A DNA stretch of 36,849 nucleotides from positions 1 to 36,849 of the forward strand of contig JAAYAQ010000087.1 of assembly GCA_012719295.1 (NCBI GenBank). The letters run 5' to 3'. A program made the translations under genes and the position numbers. The stretch comes from Candidatus Hydrogenedentota bacterium. GTDB lineage: Bacteria; Hydrogenedentota; Hydrogenedentia; Hydrogenedentales; SLHB01. Positions 3,992-9,236 of this stretch are shown here, one piece after another; the first letter of the stretch is position 1, and each line of letters begins with the position of its first letter. The notes beneath the pieces were generated by a model. That model searched no databases. It was not told the origin of the DNA and worked only from the letters and a program-made list of their open reading frames with translations.

Positions 3992-6427
3992 TTATTTTAA
4001 ACGGCTTGGCTCGACCTGCTCCCGCAGCGCCCCCACGAGCGCAGCCAGCCCGCGCAGGGCGTCTGCGAGTTCGGCGGGACCGCGCGTGGCCTGCGGGGCC
4101 ATCTGGGCAAGCGGCGTGGCGTAGAACTCGTCTTCGATCGCCTTCGCCTGCGCGGCGAGCTCGGACGGGAACGGCCATTCGGCGCGGTCTCCCGCCTCCA
4201 CCCGGGCCAGGATGTCGTCCCAGAAGGCGGCGGTCTCCTTGCGATACACGTAAGCGGCCAGTTCGTAATGATGGCTGCGGCAATACTCGTTCTCGGCGTT
4301 GCCCTTGAGGGTCAATTCGGTGTGGGGATTGAGCGCGGGCGCAACGCCGCCCAGGGGCGCGGCCTCCTCGAGCCGCCGCAGGCTTGCGGCCATCGAGAAT
4401 TCGTCGGACTGGGCCAGCAGCCCGCACAACGCGTCGAGCAGGTCGCGATTGAGCTGCGCGAGCCGCCGGATGGTCTCGGGCGCGGCCTGCTCCTCGCGCC
4501 AGGCCTGGATTTGCAGCCCGGCGCGCAGTACCGTGGCGGTCAGCGCGCGGTTCGCGGTGGTGCGGGCCATGTCCAGCGCATCGCGCCGCCACTGCGCATC
4601 GTCGTACGCCGCCGGAACCAGGTCCGCCAGGACGCTCAGCATGTCCGGGGCCGGCTGCAGCGAGGTGATGATGCGCTCGTATCCGGCGAGGACCGGGTCC
4701 CGCCGTTTGGACGACAGGTTGGCCCACATCCGGTTCGAGAGCATATGAAACTGCGGCGACGAGAAAGTCACGTTTCGCGCCGGGTTGGCCATGGACCAGT
4801 TCTCGCTCTGCGAGATGACCAGCATGTTGGTCCAGACGGGCGCCATCCGGGCGGCCAGGTCCTCCCGGTACCGGGTGCGGCAGAAGCGGGCGGTCGCGTC
4901 CGCTGCCGTCAGGCGTGCCGGCTGCCAGCTGTTGTCCGCGAGGTATTCGAGCATGAAGGTGTCGTTGTGCGATATTTCCGACCACAGCACGCAGCCCTGG
5001 CACATCGGGTCGTCCGCCGCGGTGCGGAGCCGCTCGGCCAGGAGGGCGTAATTGCCGTGGATGTCGCTGTTCCAGGCGTATCCGTGCAGCATGCCGAAAA
5101 TCCAGGGGAACCGTCCCAGCACGTTCCAGTCGCGGTAACTGACCTTTTCGGCGTCGTCCGCGGTGTAGTCGAGAAGAAGGGTGCGTTCGGGGTCGAATTC
5201 GTCGAGCGCCACGCGCACTTCCTCGTCGATCCATTTGTTGCCGAAGTCCCAGCTGGCAATGAGCAGCGGCGCGTCGGGGTAATGTTCCCGGAGCTTCTGT
5301 TGAATTTTCCGGTAGGCATAGCGTTTCTTCTGAAACCCGTCGCGCCGGGTTTCGCCAAAGCTCCGCTCGGCCATGCCGATGGTGTGAAACAGGCGCGGCT
5401 GCCCGCCGCCGAATTCCCGGATATGCGTCTGCGTCAGGTTCCAGTACGCGTCCCACGCCCGTTCGTACTCGATGTCCCAGATGGCCGCGGTGGGAAGTCC
5501 GTATCCGGTCTTCTGGTCCCGGGTCACCGGGAAATCGGGGAAACTGCGGTAAAACGAGCTGGGCGTGTGCGAATACCAGTGGGTGATGGTGCCCGTATCC
5601 TCCGGATGCAGCAATCCCCGGTCGCGGGCGTACTGGAGCACCGCTTTCCGCAGTTCGCCGCGGTACTGCAATGGCCAGAACGACGTGCGATCGTCATAAG
5701 ACCGGTCTTTCGCGTCGGGATCCTGCGCATCGGCGGGCGGATAGGGCACATCGCCGGGAAACGCCCGCTGAAACAGGTCGTCGTGGCCGGTGCGCAGCAT
5801 GAACAGATTGAAGCGTTTCTTGAGCAGCCAGTCGATCTCGCGTTTCCAGTCCTCGAGGGTCCAGTGCTCGGCCTGGAACCGGTGCAGACCGCGATGGGCG
5901 AAATAGCGCAGGCCCCGGTAGGCAAAGCGGGGCGACTCGGCAATATCCACGCCGGCGATGCCCAGGCCGGGTACCCGGGGCGCCACGTCGCCGTCCCAGA
6001 AATACTCGACACCCGCCTGGCGGCGGAAGAAATCGTAGACGGCGTAGAGCGTCGACCGCCCGCTTCCGCCCGCAACGATGAGGTAACGGCAGGGCGGCGC
6101 GTCCACCGACAAGACGCGGTAGCCGTCCGAGCCGTATTGCAGCCCCAGCGACTCCAGTACCCCGCGGCGAATGAGGTCGTGCACCACGGGATTCACGGCG
6201 TCCGAGCCGATCAGCACCACGTCGCCCGACACGGGCGCCTGGTCCGCGCTTACAAGCGCGGGAGCGCGGCTCGTGACCGAGGTCCAGAGTTCGACGAAAT
6301 TCGCGGCGGCGATGGAATACGCCGGTTCACCGGCGCCTGGCGCGACGACGGTAAGGATTTCCTGGGCGGCCGGAGCGCCGGCGAGCGCAGACAGCAAAAC
6401 GGCAAACACAAGAAGACGTCGCATCAT
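3992..6427 (-). CDS. Secreted GH89-like alpha-N-acetylglucosaminidase
   Basis: An 811-residue exported protein resembling family GH89 (NAGLU-type), which removes terminal alpha-linked N-acetylglucosamine, for example from heparan sulphate or mucin glycans. After a signal peptide (1 to about 21) come an N-terminal alpha/beta domain (about 25-165), a TIM barrel from about 168, marked by FAYRGLRYFAHRG and DWKREIDWLLKKRFNLF, and an alpha-helical C-terminal domain (about 500-811), as in GH89. E354 in GMAERSF and E484 in LWSEISHND fall at places corresponding to the general acid and nucleophile of characterised GH89 enzymes, judged by hand alignment. PWIFGMLHGY (441-450) matches the conserved barrel segment. 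The start is the first of two ATGs (6427/6424) after AGGGGGG. It has its own likely promoter and ends 134 bp before the glycosidase-like gene. Exact substrate is uncertain. Confidence 0.75.
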   Translation of the reverse strand: MMRRLLVFAVLLSALAGAPAAQEILTVVAPGAGEPAYSIAAANFVELWTSVTSRAPALVSADQAPVSGDVVLIGSDAVNPVVHDLIRRGVLESLGLQYGSDGYRVLSVDAPPCRYLIVAGGSGRSTLYAVYDFFRRQAGVEYFWDGDVAPRVPGLGIAGVDIAESPRFAYRGLRYFAHRGLHRFQAEHWTLEDWKREIDWLLKKRFNLFMLRTGHDDLFQRAFPGDVPYPPADAQDPDAKDRSYDDRTSFWPLQYRGELRKAVLQYARDRGLLHPEDTGTITHWYSHTPSSFYRSFPDFPVTRDQKTGYGLPTAAIWDIEYERAWDAYWNLTQTHIREFGGGQPRLFHTIGMAERSFGETRRDGFQKKRYAYRKIQQKLREHYPDAPLLIASWDFGNKWIDEEVRVALDEFDPERTLLLDYTADDAEKVSYRDWNVLGRFPWIFGMLHGYAWNSDIHGNYALLAERLRTAADDPMCQGCVLWSEISHNDTFMLEYLADNSWQPARLTAADATARFCRTRYREDLAARMAPVWTNMLVISQSENWSMANPARNVTFSSPQFHMLSNRMWANLSSKRRDPVLAGYERIITSLQPAPDMLSVLADLVPAAYDDAQWRRDALDMARTTANRALTATVLRAGLQIQAWREEQAAPETIRRLAQLNRDLLDALCGLLAQSDEFSMAASLRRLEEAAPLGGVAPALNPHTELTLKGNAENEYCRSHHYELAAYVYRKETAAFWDDILARVEAGDRAEWPFPSELAAQAKAIEDEFYATPLAQMAPQATRGPAELADALRGLAALVGALREQVEPSRLK

Positions 6428-6456
6428 CTTCCCCCCTCGATGGCTTGTATGCGGCA

Positions 6457-6558: not shown

Positions 6559-7890
6559 TCAGCCGGTGACTTTTTCCTGTAACGCGCGATAGCCGTAGTA
6601 CATGGTCAGCTGGTCGAGCAGGATGATGGCCATGAACGCCTCGGCCACCGGCCACACGCGCGCGACGATGGTCGGGTCGCGGCGCGTCACGGCGGACAGC
6701 GTGGCGTTTTCCATCGAGACCTTGTCGATCGTCACCTGGTCCTTCGCGATGGTCGGCGTGGGCTTGACCGCGAGCCGGACCACGATGTCCTGGCCCGTGG
6801 TGAGGCCGCCGGTGATGCCGCCCGCGTTGTTGCTGTCGAACACGGCCGTGCCGTTCTTCACGCGCATCTGGTCGTTGCACTCCGAGCCGCGCATGTCCTT
6901 GACCTGCATGCCTGCGCCGATCTCGACCGCCTTGATGGTGCCGATGCTCATCATGCGGCCCAGTTCGCCGTCGAGCTTGCTGAACACGGGTTCGCCCACG
7001 CCCGCGGGCAGGCCCGTCGCCACGACTTCGCAGACCCCGCCGCTCGAATCGCCTTCGTCGCGGATCTCGACGATCCGTTTGTACATGGCCCGGGCGGCGT
7101 CGACGTCCGGGCAGTTCAACAGGGGATGCACGCCCGCGTCCCGGCAGACGGCGTCCATGTCGATGGGCTGGGCGCTGTTGCGAATCTCGATGAGGTTCGC
7201 TTCGAGTTCCGCGAGCACGGCCATCTTCTCGAGAAACCGCATGTCGTCGTGAAAGCGTTGCGCGCCGAACACCCAGTCGTAGATGACGTCATATTGGCGG
7301 CGCACGTCACGAAACGCCTCGACCTTCGCGCGGGCCTCGTCGCGGGGCACATCCGCGCCCCGCACACCCGCGGCTTCCTTCACGTAACCGAACACGTCGA
7401 TGCCATGGTCCCTGAGCACCCGTTTGGCCACCGCGCCCGCGGCGACAAGCGTCGAGGTGTAGCGCCCGCTGAAAAACCCCGCGCCGATGGAGTCGTCGTT
7501 CTCGCCGTATTTCTGGTACGACGCGTACGAGGCGTGGCCGGGACGCGGCGTGCGGTTGGTCACCTGGTACTGTTCGATGTGTTCAAAATGGCGGTCGAGG
7601 TTGGGGATCAGCACCACCAGGGGCGTGCCGTTGGTTTTGCCCCGGTTTGTGAACCCCGGCATGGTGTCCGCCGCGTTCAGGCCGCTGTAGATCACAGGCA
7701 CGTCGGGCTCGCGCCGGGGCGACGTCAATTCGCCCTGGCCGGGCTTGCGCAGCAGCAGGTCGCGATAGATCATCTCCTCGGTGATGCGGAGCCCCGTGGG
7801 CACACCCTGAAGATGCACCGTCAACCCTTCCTGATACGAACCGCCCGCCACCGTGGTCTTGAAAACGTTGCCGTAGGTGCAGCCAAGCAT
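6559..7890 (-). CDS. aroC: Chorismate synthase, divergent (active-site His replaced, large insertion)
   Basis: Chorismate synthase converts 5-enolpyruvylshikimate-3-phosphate to chorismate with reduced FMN, the last shikimate step. Family features are clear: TSPRREPD (56-63), RPGHA (116-120), SGRYTSTLVAAGAVAK (141-156), the EGDSSGG turn (279-285), KLDGELGRMMSIGTIKAVEIG (305-325), GSECND (335-340), NNAGGITGG (354-362) and RRDP (403-406). Two things are odd. The N-terminal FGESHG signature, with its active-site His, reads AGGSYQEG (15-22), putting Tyr19 in place of that His and adding a residue; the second active-site His (H119) is kept. An insertion of about 55-60 residues (near 183-243) raises the length to 443, against the usual 350-390. 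The ATG at 7890 follows GGAGGAGAGGG. Lies 71 bp after aroA and probably shares its promoter. Confidence 0.88.
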   Translation of the reverse strand: MLGCTYGNVFKTTVAGGSYQEGLTVHLQGVPTGLRITEEMIYRDLLLRKPGQGELTSPRREPDVPVIYSGLNAADTMPGFTNRGKTNGTPLVVLIPNLDRHFEHIEQYQVTNRTPRPGHASYASYQKYGENDDSIGAGFFSGRYTSTLVAAGAVAKRVLRDHGIDVFGYVKEAAGVRGADVPRDEARAKVEAFRDVRRQYDVIYDWVFGAQRFHDDMRFLEKMAVLAELEANLIEIRNSAQPIDMDAVCRDAGVHPLLNCPDVDAARAMYKRIVEIRDEGDSSGGVCEVVATGLPAGVGEPVFSKLDGELGRMMSIGTIKAVEIGAGMQVKDMRGSECNDQMRVKNGTAVFDSNNAGGITGGLTTGQDIVVRLAVKPTPTIAKDQVTIDKVSMENATLSAVTRRDPTIVARVWPVAEAFMAIILLDQLTMYYGYRALQEKVTG

Positions 7891-7961: not shown

Positions 7962-9236
7962 CTACTCGGCGATGCGCGCCGCGCCGCCCAACCGCATCAG
8001 TTCCTCGGCAAATCCGGGATACGTGACGGCGGCCGCCTCGTAGCCCCGGATGCGAACCGGTTCCGAAATGCGGGTCGCGCCCACGGCCAGCGCCATCACC
8101 ACGCGGTGATCGTCCTGCCCGTCGACCTCGCCGCCGTGCAACCGGCTCTGATGAACGACCAAACCGTCGGCGAGTTCCTCGATCTGCGCGCCGAGCTTCG
8201 TGAGTTCCTGGCGCATCACCGCGATGCGGTCGGTCTCCTTCAGGCGCGCCTGGGGGACGTTCACCAGGCGCGTCGTGCCTTCCGCGAAACAGCCCAGCAC
8301 GGCCATCATGGGCAACGCGTCCGGCGTGGCGTTCAGGTCCAGCTCGGTCCCTTTCAGCGCCTTCGCCCGCACGCGTACGCCCTCGTCTTCTTCCGAGATC
8401 TCGGCCCCCATCGCGCGGAGGTAGTCAAGCACGGCCTTGTCGCCCTGCACATCGGTCAGATCGAGCCCGCGCGACAGCACATTGTTCCCTTCGAGCGCCC
8501 CCGCGGCCAGGAAAAAGGTCGCCGACGAGAAATCGCCGGGGATGCGCCGGTCAAAGGCCGGATAGCGCTGGCCGCCGGGCACGCGGAACCACTGGAGCCC
8601 GTCGCGTTCGAGGACAATGCCTTCCCGTTCGAGCCAATCGAGCGTCATCACCACATACGGCGCCTCATTCAGCAGGGTGACCTCGATCTCCGTGTCGCCG
8701 TCGGCCAGGGGCGCGGCCAGCAGCAGACTCGACAGGTATTGGCTGGTCGCGGCCTCGATGGCGGTCCGTCCTCCGCGCAACCGGCCCTCGACGACAAACG
8801 GCGCGCAGCCGTTGCCGCGTGTCGAGCGCACGCGCGCGCCAAGTTCGGTCAACGCGCCGGCCAGCGGACCGCCGGGCCGCCGCCGGATCTGCTGGTCGCC
8901 CGTGAGCACCGCCATACCCGACCGCAACAGGGCCGCCGACCCCATGGCAATACGGAGACTGGTGCCGGAATTGCCGACGTCAATGACGTTTTCGGGCGTG
9001 CGCGGTTCCCCGTGCAGCCCCTGAACACGCCAGACGTCCGGCGTGAGCTCGAGGTCCGCGCCAAACGCGCGGTAGACCGCCACACAGGCTGCCGCGTCCC
9101 GGGATTCCAGCGGCTGCCGGATCACACTTTCGCCCCCGGCCAGCGCGGCCACCGCCACCGCGCGGATGGTGTGCGACTTCGAACCGGGGATGTTCACCGC
9201 CCCCCGGAGCGTGCTTTTCTCGCAGATCAGATCCAT
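7962..9236 (-). CDS. aroA: 3-phosphoshikimate 1-carboxyvinyltransferase (EPSP synthase)
   Basis: Transfers enolpyruvate from PEP to shikimate-3-phosphate, the sixth shikimate step. The 424-residue length is normal. Conserved pieces are present: PGSKSHTIR (17-25, with the substrate-binding Lys, Ser and Arg), the PEP-binding GNSGTSLR (88-95), RRRP (118-121), SQYLSSLLLAAPLA (165-178), TPDALP (304-309, catalytic Asp306), RLKETDRI (331-338, catalytic Glu334) and DDHRVVMALAVGA (375-387). The last active-site loop has AAAVTYPGF where the E. coli enzyme has a lysine before TFPDY; I recall similar loops in Gram-positive enzymes, so this need not impair activity. GNSGTS differs from the GNAGTA of the E. 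coli-type enzyme. The ribosome-binding site before the ATG is weak. First gene of the aroA-aroC pair. Confidence 0.95.
   Translation of the reverse strand: MDLICEKSTLRGAVNIPGSKSHTIRAVAVAALAGGESVIRQPLESRDAAACVAVYRAFGADLELTPDVWRVQGLHGEPRTPENVIDVGNSGTSLRIAMGSAALLRSGMAVLTGDQQIRRRPGGPLAGALTELGARVRSTRGNGCAPFVVEGRLRGGRTAIEAATSQYLSSLLLAAPLADGDTEIEVTLLNEAPYVVMTLDWLEREGIVLERDGLQWFRVPGGQRYPAFDRRIPGDFSSATFFLAAGALEGNNVLSRGLDLTDVQGDKAVLDYLRAMGAEISEEDEGVRVRAKALKGTELDLNATPDALPMMAVLGCFAEGTTRLVNVPQARLKETDRIAVMRQELTKLGAQIEELADGLVVHQSRLHGGEVDGQDDHRVVMALAVGATRISEPVRIRGYEAAAVTYPGFAEELMRLGGAARIAE

What the first reader, a model, noticed from the sequence alone, without database searches (positions are those of the whole stretch)
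6559..7890. Chorismate synthase lacking its N-terminal active-site His and carrying a large insertion
Seen: the FGESHG signature is replaced by AGGSYQEG, placing Tyr19 at the catalytic-type His; the second active-site His (H119, RPGHA) and other family motifs are intact; an extra segment of about 55-60 residues (near 183-243) lies before the CPD segment. Known: this His is treated as an acid close to FMN, and its mutation lowers activity in studied enzymes. Inference: either a divergent but working clade (Tyr as acid), or a neofunctionalised paralogue next to aroA. Both shikimate genes stand alone here, so knowing if another aroC exists elsewhere in the genome is key.
Basis: partly seen in the sequence, partly recalled or inferred. 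Interest (0 to 1): 0.6.

Follow-up and report, generated by a model that had tools for sequence, protein, structure and literature searches.

The report
Third, Tyr-type class of chorismate synthase
The gene encodes a member of a widespread, apparently undescribed class of chorismate synthase, the last enzyme of the shikimate pathway, in which one of two histidines regarded as invariant is always a tyrosine; because many bacteria have only this version, that histidine is probably not essential to the reaction.

Summary
P0001 (443 aa) is a chorismate synthase homologue with Tyr19 where canonical enzymes have His, and a helical insert of about 60-67 residues. It is no error: 87 of 87 aligned relatives carry Tyr, against His in 56 of 56 canonical AroCs. 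The clade is cohesive (100% support) and spans seven phyla. This does not make P0001 a neofunctionalised paralogue. Of 49 genomes examined outside Hydrogenedentota, 31 have only the Tyr form, and nearly all of those tested encode chorismate-consuming enzymes. In Spirochaetota the two forms almost exclude each other. The Tyr form often follows aroA, here the genome's only EPSP synthase gene. EPSP contacts, the FMN-side His (H119) and the Asp base (D405) are kept. Best reading: a functional third class of chorismate synthase using Tyr19 and/or class-specific Arg404 there. Activity and Tyr19 geometry were not tested.

The parts
6559..7890 (-). Tyr-type ('long') chorismate synthase homologue P0001, 443 aa, ATG start at 7890
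   Evidence: PF01264 E 3.1e-94; NCBIfam TIGR00033 312 bits vs cut-off 212
7834..7836 (-). codon of Tyr19, the position of His10 (S. pneumoniae) / His17 (yeast, N. crassa)
7534..7536 (-). codon of His119, equivalent of His110/His106 next to FMN N1; conserved
6679..6681 (-). codon of Arg404 (RRDP), class-specific; His or Ser in canonical AroC
   Evidence: R 87/87 vs H 51 / S 5
6676..6678 (-). codon of Asp405, equivalent of Sp Asp339, the base that primes FMN N5; conserved
7114..7371 (-). segment 174-259 holding the four-helix insert (net about 60-67 extra residues)
7962..9236 (-). aroA (EPSP synthase), 71 nt upstream on the same strand; the only EPSP synthase found in the genome
   Evidence: the other PF00275 match (C30) reads as MurA next to hisD

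Best explanation
P0001 is a working chorismate synthase of a distinct third class. It should convert EPSP to chorismate with reduced FMN like the canonical enzyme. Shown by sequence: the EPSP-contact arginines R48, R116, R143, R403 and R411, Ser18, Ser141, the FMN-side His119 and the Asp405 base are kept. Shown by genomics: it stands in for canonical AroC in many genomes and often follows aroA. Inferred: the step usually given to His17, protonation of the leaving 3-phosphate, is done by Tyr19 and/or by the class-specific Arg404, or needs no dedicated acid because the phosphate leaves as an ion held by arginines. The helical insert is probably peripheral or affects assembly or partner binding; its role is unknown. 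In this genome it coexists with a canonical aroC.
For: Only AroC-family gene in 31 of 49 non-Hydrogenedentota genomes, including three single-contig chromosomes. TrpE/PabB-type genes in 30 of 31 Tyr-form-only genomes tested, at least one PF00275 match in all 31 and two or more in most (this family also covers MurA), prephenate dehydratase in 29 of 32 genomes tested including the window's. Spirochaetota: 14 Tyr form only, 1 both, 117 canonical only, Fisher p about 2e-10 without phylogenetic correction. aroA directly upstream on the same strand within 300 nt in 28 of 64 loci, in Armatimonadota, Bacteroidota, Planctomycetota, Verrucomicrobiota and others; in this genome it is the only aroA. Binding and catalytic residues conserved (with PMC11633415, PMC3509576). 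Purifying selection, dN/dS 0.12 vs the congener, like aroA 0.12 and the canonical copy 0.10. The AF2 model matches only chorismate synthase structures, TMt up to 0.92.
Against: No activity data. The position of Tyr19 relative to EPSP was not measured (no coordinates available). In Hydrogenedentota the form is accessory: 23 of 26 carriers also have canonical aroC. DHQ synthase (PF01761) was not found in the three single-contig chromosomes. Most absences rest on draft MAGs.
Confidence: 0.85

Rival explanations
1. Neofunctionalised paralogue: the canonical copy makes chorismate and the Tyr form acts on another EPSP-like substrate or has a non-chorismate role, at least in genomes that keep both.
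For: Second canonical aroC in the genome, vertically shared with the congener. Coexistence in 23 of 26 Hydrogenedentota carriers. Class-specific changes E->G17, H->Y19, G->Q20, D->S121, H->R404. Long stem of 2.86 changes per column.
Against: 31 of 49 other genomes have only this form, yet nearly all of those tested carry chorismate-using enzymes. EPSP contacts kept. It follows the only aroA of the genome. Near mutual exclusivity in Spirochaetota.
Confidence: 0.08
2. Redundant second chorismate synthase (a sub-case of the best explanation): same reaction as the canonical copy, spread by horizontal transfer, kept here for dosage or for different redox conditions, for example a different flavin reductase partner.
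For: Both copies under purifying selection. High identity across phyla (62-78%) suggests transfer. The canonical copy in this family is of the Gram-positive type, unlike other families of the order.
Against: No evidence for a redox or dosage role was obtained; strict redundancy is usually not stable.
Confidence: 0.4
3. Artefact: sequencing error, frameshift or binning contamination.
For: The genome is a 641-contig MAG with 3.8% contamination.
Against: The same motif occurs in 86 other aligned sequences. The congener G001 has both copies, and the canonical contig is collinear with G001 at 89.7% over 5.8 kb with the same GC.
Confidence: 0.01

Closest known systems
Canonical chorismate synthase AroC, short type (yeast Aro2 1R52, P. 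aeruginosa 5Z9A, A. baumannii 4LJ2)
   Same: Fold; RKPG, RPGH, SxR, GGI.GG, KP.P, RDP motifs; EPSP-binding arginines; FMN-side His; Asp base
   Different: Tyr19 for His17, Gly17 for Glu15, Ser121 for Asp, Arg404 for His; helical insert of about 60-67 residues; separate clade with a long stem
Canonical chorismate synthase AroC, Gram-positive type (S. pneumoniae 1QXO, M. tuberculosis 2O12); the second copy in this genome belongs here
   Same: Fold and catalytic set except the His
   Different: As above; also lacks the GYGRG loop (has RKPGQGEL)
NCBIfam TIGR00033 / NF003793 (aroC, PRK05382)
   Same: Scores 312 bits against a cut-off of 212 for TIGR00033, so automatic annotation would call it chorismate synthase
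   Different: 316 bits, just under the 321 cut-off of NF003793; the name says nothing of the lost His

Membership tests
Chorismate synthase (PF01264) | Significant full-length match to the family profile | tested here: met
   E 3.1e-94, residues 10-428, profile 1-326 of 327
Chorismate synthase (PF01264) | Chorismate synthase fold | tested here: met
   AF2 pLDDT 88.2, pTM 0.91; all 28 PDB matches at E<=0.001 are chorismate synthases
Chorismate synthase (PF01264) | Phosphate-side His (His17 / Sp His10) in GESHG, regarded as invariant | tested here: not met
   Tyr19 in 87/87 of the clade. It is therefore not a canonical AroC by motif; homology and superfamily membership are unaffected
Chorismate synthase (PF01264) | FMN-side His (His106 / Sp His110) | tested here: met
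   H119 invariant
Chorismate synthase (PF01264) | Asp base that primes FMN N5 (Sp Asp339) | tested here: met
   D405 invariant
Chorismate synthase (PF01264) | EPSP-contact arginines (R46, R103, R129, R354, R362 in P. brasiliensis numbering) | tested here: met
   R48, R116, R143, R403, R411 (contacts from PMC11633415)
Chorismate synthase (PF01264) | Conversion of EPSP to chorismate with reduced FMN | not testable with these tools
   Indirect only: sole AroC in many genomes with chorismate-using enzymes
Chorismate synthase (PF01264) | Homotetramer | not tested
   Only a monomer was modelled

The most novel reading that the evidence does not exclude
In lineages that keep both copies, such as this one, the Tyr form has left chorismate synthesis and performs a related 1,4-elimination on another shikimate-type phosphate supplied by the adjacent AroA.
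Probability: 0.06. Interest if true: 0.75.

Novelty: new variant of a known kind. Interest (0 to 1): 0.52.

Why it matters
Chorismate synthase is an antimicrobial and herbicide target, and its mechanism is usually described with two invariant active-site histidines. A natural class that lacks one of them, yet is the only AroC in many bacteria, makes the role of that His directly testable with native enzymes. It also marks a third structural class with a helical insert that automatic annotation does not separate. I found no paper describing it in the open-access library searched; most subscription papers are not held there.

Tried and rejected
My first reading that EPSP-binding basic residues were lost (positions R125->F, K52->E in yeast numbering) was checked against mapped contacts and rejected: the reported EPSP contacts are all kept. 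Contamination as source of the canonical copy was rejected. The idea that missing canonical copies are only assembly gaps was rejected for the family, because 31 of 49 genomes outside Hydrogenedentota lack it, but it cannot be excluded for the three Hydrogenedentota Tyr-only genomes (G009, G014, G017). The genome-contig scan used the pattern AGGSYQ[ED]GL as one of two, so Tyr19 there is partly ascertained; the unbiased protein and profile searches gave Tyr in every hit inspected that covers the site. Literature searches for an earlier description found nothing.

Full report
OBSERVATION. The ORF lies at 6559..7890 on the minus strand and encodes 443 aa. It begins MLGCTYGNVFKTTVAGGSYQEG. Tyr19 falls where canonical enzymes have the His of GESHG, which is S. 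pneumoniae His10 and yeast/N. crassa His17. H119 (RPGHA) is intact. It is a clear PF01264 member (E 3.1e-94) and passes TIGR00033. Compared with solved chorismate synthases, the stretch between the strand ending at residue 173 and CPD at 260 is about 60-67 residues longer, and there is a second insert of about 10 residues near 72-82. AlphaFold2, using 65 relatives, gives pLDDT 88.2 and pTM 0.91 and models the insert as four helices. All 28 PDB matches at E<=0.001 are chorismate synthases.

A SECOND AROC IN THE GENOME. The assembly G000 (4.79 Mb, 641 contigs, 93.8% complete) holds another aroC on contig C287 with a normal GESHG. It is not contamination: C287 is collinear with a contig of the same-genus genome G001 at 89.7% over 5.8 kb, with equal GC, and G001 carries both forms. 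Both copies, and aroA, are under purifying selection against G001 (dN/dS 0.12 Tyr form, 0.10 canonical, 0.12 aroA). The window aroA, 71 nt upstream of the Tyr form, is the only EPSP synthase in the genome; the other PF00275 match reads as MurA.

HOW WIDESPREAD. In Hydrogenedentota 26 of 68 genomes carry the Tyr form. A scan of genome contigs found 305 relatives. The 80 kept span Hydrogenedentota, Armatimonadota (Hebobacteria), Spirochaetota, Verrucomicrobiota, Lentisphaerota, Planctomycetota and Bacteroidota, at 62-78% identity for most. It is rare in Planctomycetota at large (7 of 246 genomes) and in Bacteroidales (only the centre genome among 80). In a tree of 101 sequences the Tyr form is one clade with 100% SH-aLRT support on a stem of 2.86 changes per column. 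The canonical sequences split into a Gram-positive type, which includes the second copy of this genome, and short types (quick method, long branches present). All 87 aligned Tyr-form sequences have Tyr19, Gly17, Gln20, Ser121 and Arg404; all 56 canonical ones have His, Glu, Gly, Asp and His/Ser there. The contig scan used AGGSYQ as one of two patterns, so it is partly biased. The profile search of Planctomycetota is not, and every hit covering the site has Tyr.

IS IT A CHORISMATE SYNTHASE? Four lines say yes. (1) Of 49 non-Hydrogenedentota genomes with the form, 31 have no other AroC-family gene, including three single-contig chromosomes, and 18 have both. Of 31 Tyr-form-only genomes tested, 30 carry TrpE/PabB-type chorismate-binding enzymes; all 31 have at least one PF00275 match and most have two or more (this family covers AroA and MurA); 29 of 32 genomes tested, including the window's, carry prephenate dehydratase. 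(2) In 149 Spirochaetota genomes the two forms nearly exclude each other: 14 Tyr only, 1 both, 117 canonical only, 17 neither; Fisher p about 2e-10, not corrected for relatedness. (3) aroA lies directly upstream on the same strand within 300 nt in 28 of 64 loci, including the three single-contig chromosomes, and shikimate kinase lies within 6 kb in 13. (4) The residues reported to contact EPSP or its analogue in a fungal enzyme (R46, R103, R129, R354, R362, S127; PMC11633415) map to R48, R116, R143, R403, R411 and S141, all kept. The FMN-N1 His (H119) and the Asp that primes FMN N5 (D405) are kept too (roles from PMC3509576). The mapping of fungal numbers onto P0001 was done by hand from the alignments.

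MECHANISM. The literature puts His106/His110 next to FMN (kept here) and His17 next to the EPSP phosphate, as proposed donor to the leaving group (PMC3509576, PMC7144000, PMC2386126). So the class keeps substrate-induced flavin protonation and the Asp/N5 base, and changes the phosphate side. Candidates for the lost role are Tyr19 itself, the class-specific Arg404 next to the Asp base, or no dedicated acid. A recent study also lists arginines as possible donors there (PMC12697075). None of these was tested, and no coordinates were available to measure distances.

LIMITS AND ODDITIES. In Hydrogenedentota the form is accessory: 23 of 26 carriers also have canonical aroC, so a distinct role in this phylum is not excluded. 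The three single-contig chromosomes lack a detectable class-I DHQ synthase although 12 of 12 other genomes tested have it. They may use another DHQ synthase or be affected by frameshifts; this was not resolved. Absences in draft MAGs are individually weak, and the argument rests on their number and on exclusivity.

VERDICT. It is a new variant of a known kind.

Noticed in passing
G070, G107, G116 (genomes of L096, L145, L160): Three single-contig chromosomes whose only AroC is the Tyr form lack a PF01761 DHQ synthase while keeping EPSP synthase next to the Tyr form and TrpE/PabB-type genes; possibly an alternative early shikimate pathway.
   Followed up: no
L068 1997-3601; other families of the order: In other Hydrogenedentota families the canonical AroC reads as the C-terminal part of a protein of about 535-560 aa whose N-terminus looks like shikimate kinase (P-loop GPKGAGKTT), i.e. 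an AroK-AroC fusion.
   Followed up: partly
L066, L068, L138: Canonical and Tyr-form aroC lie about 1 kb apart on the same contig in G058, G059 and G101, divergently in G058 and G059.
   Followed up: partly
L128 and L134 (G095); L090 and L091 (G068): Two Tyr-form copies in one genome and no canonical copy.
   Followed up: no
L001 (G000:C287): The family of this genome carries a Gram-positive-type canonical aroC, unlike the short type in the rest of the order, suggesting replacement by horizontal transfer.
   Followed up: partly
window 3992-6433 (-): Alpha-N-acetylglucosaminidase-like (NAGLU) gene directly downstream of the aroA-aroC pair; other neighbours are a GHL6 hydrolase and an M50B peptidase, unrelated to the shikimate pathway.
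   Followed up: no
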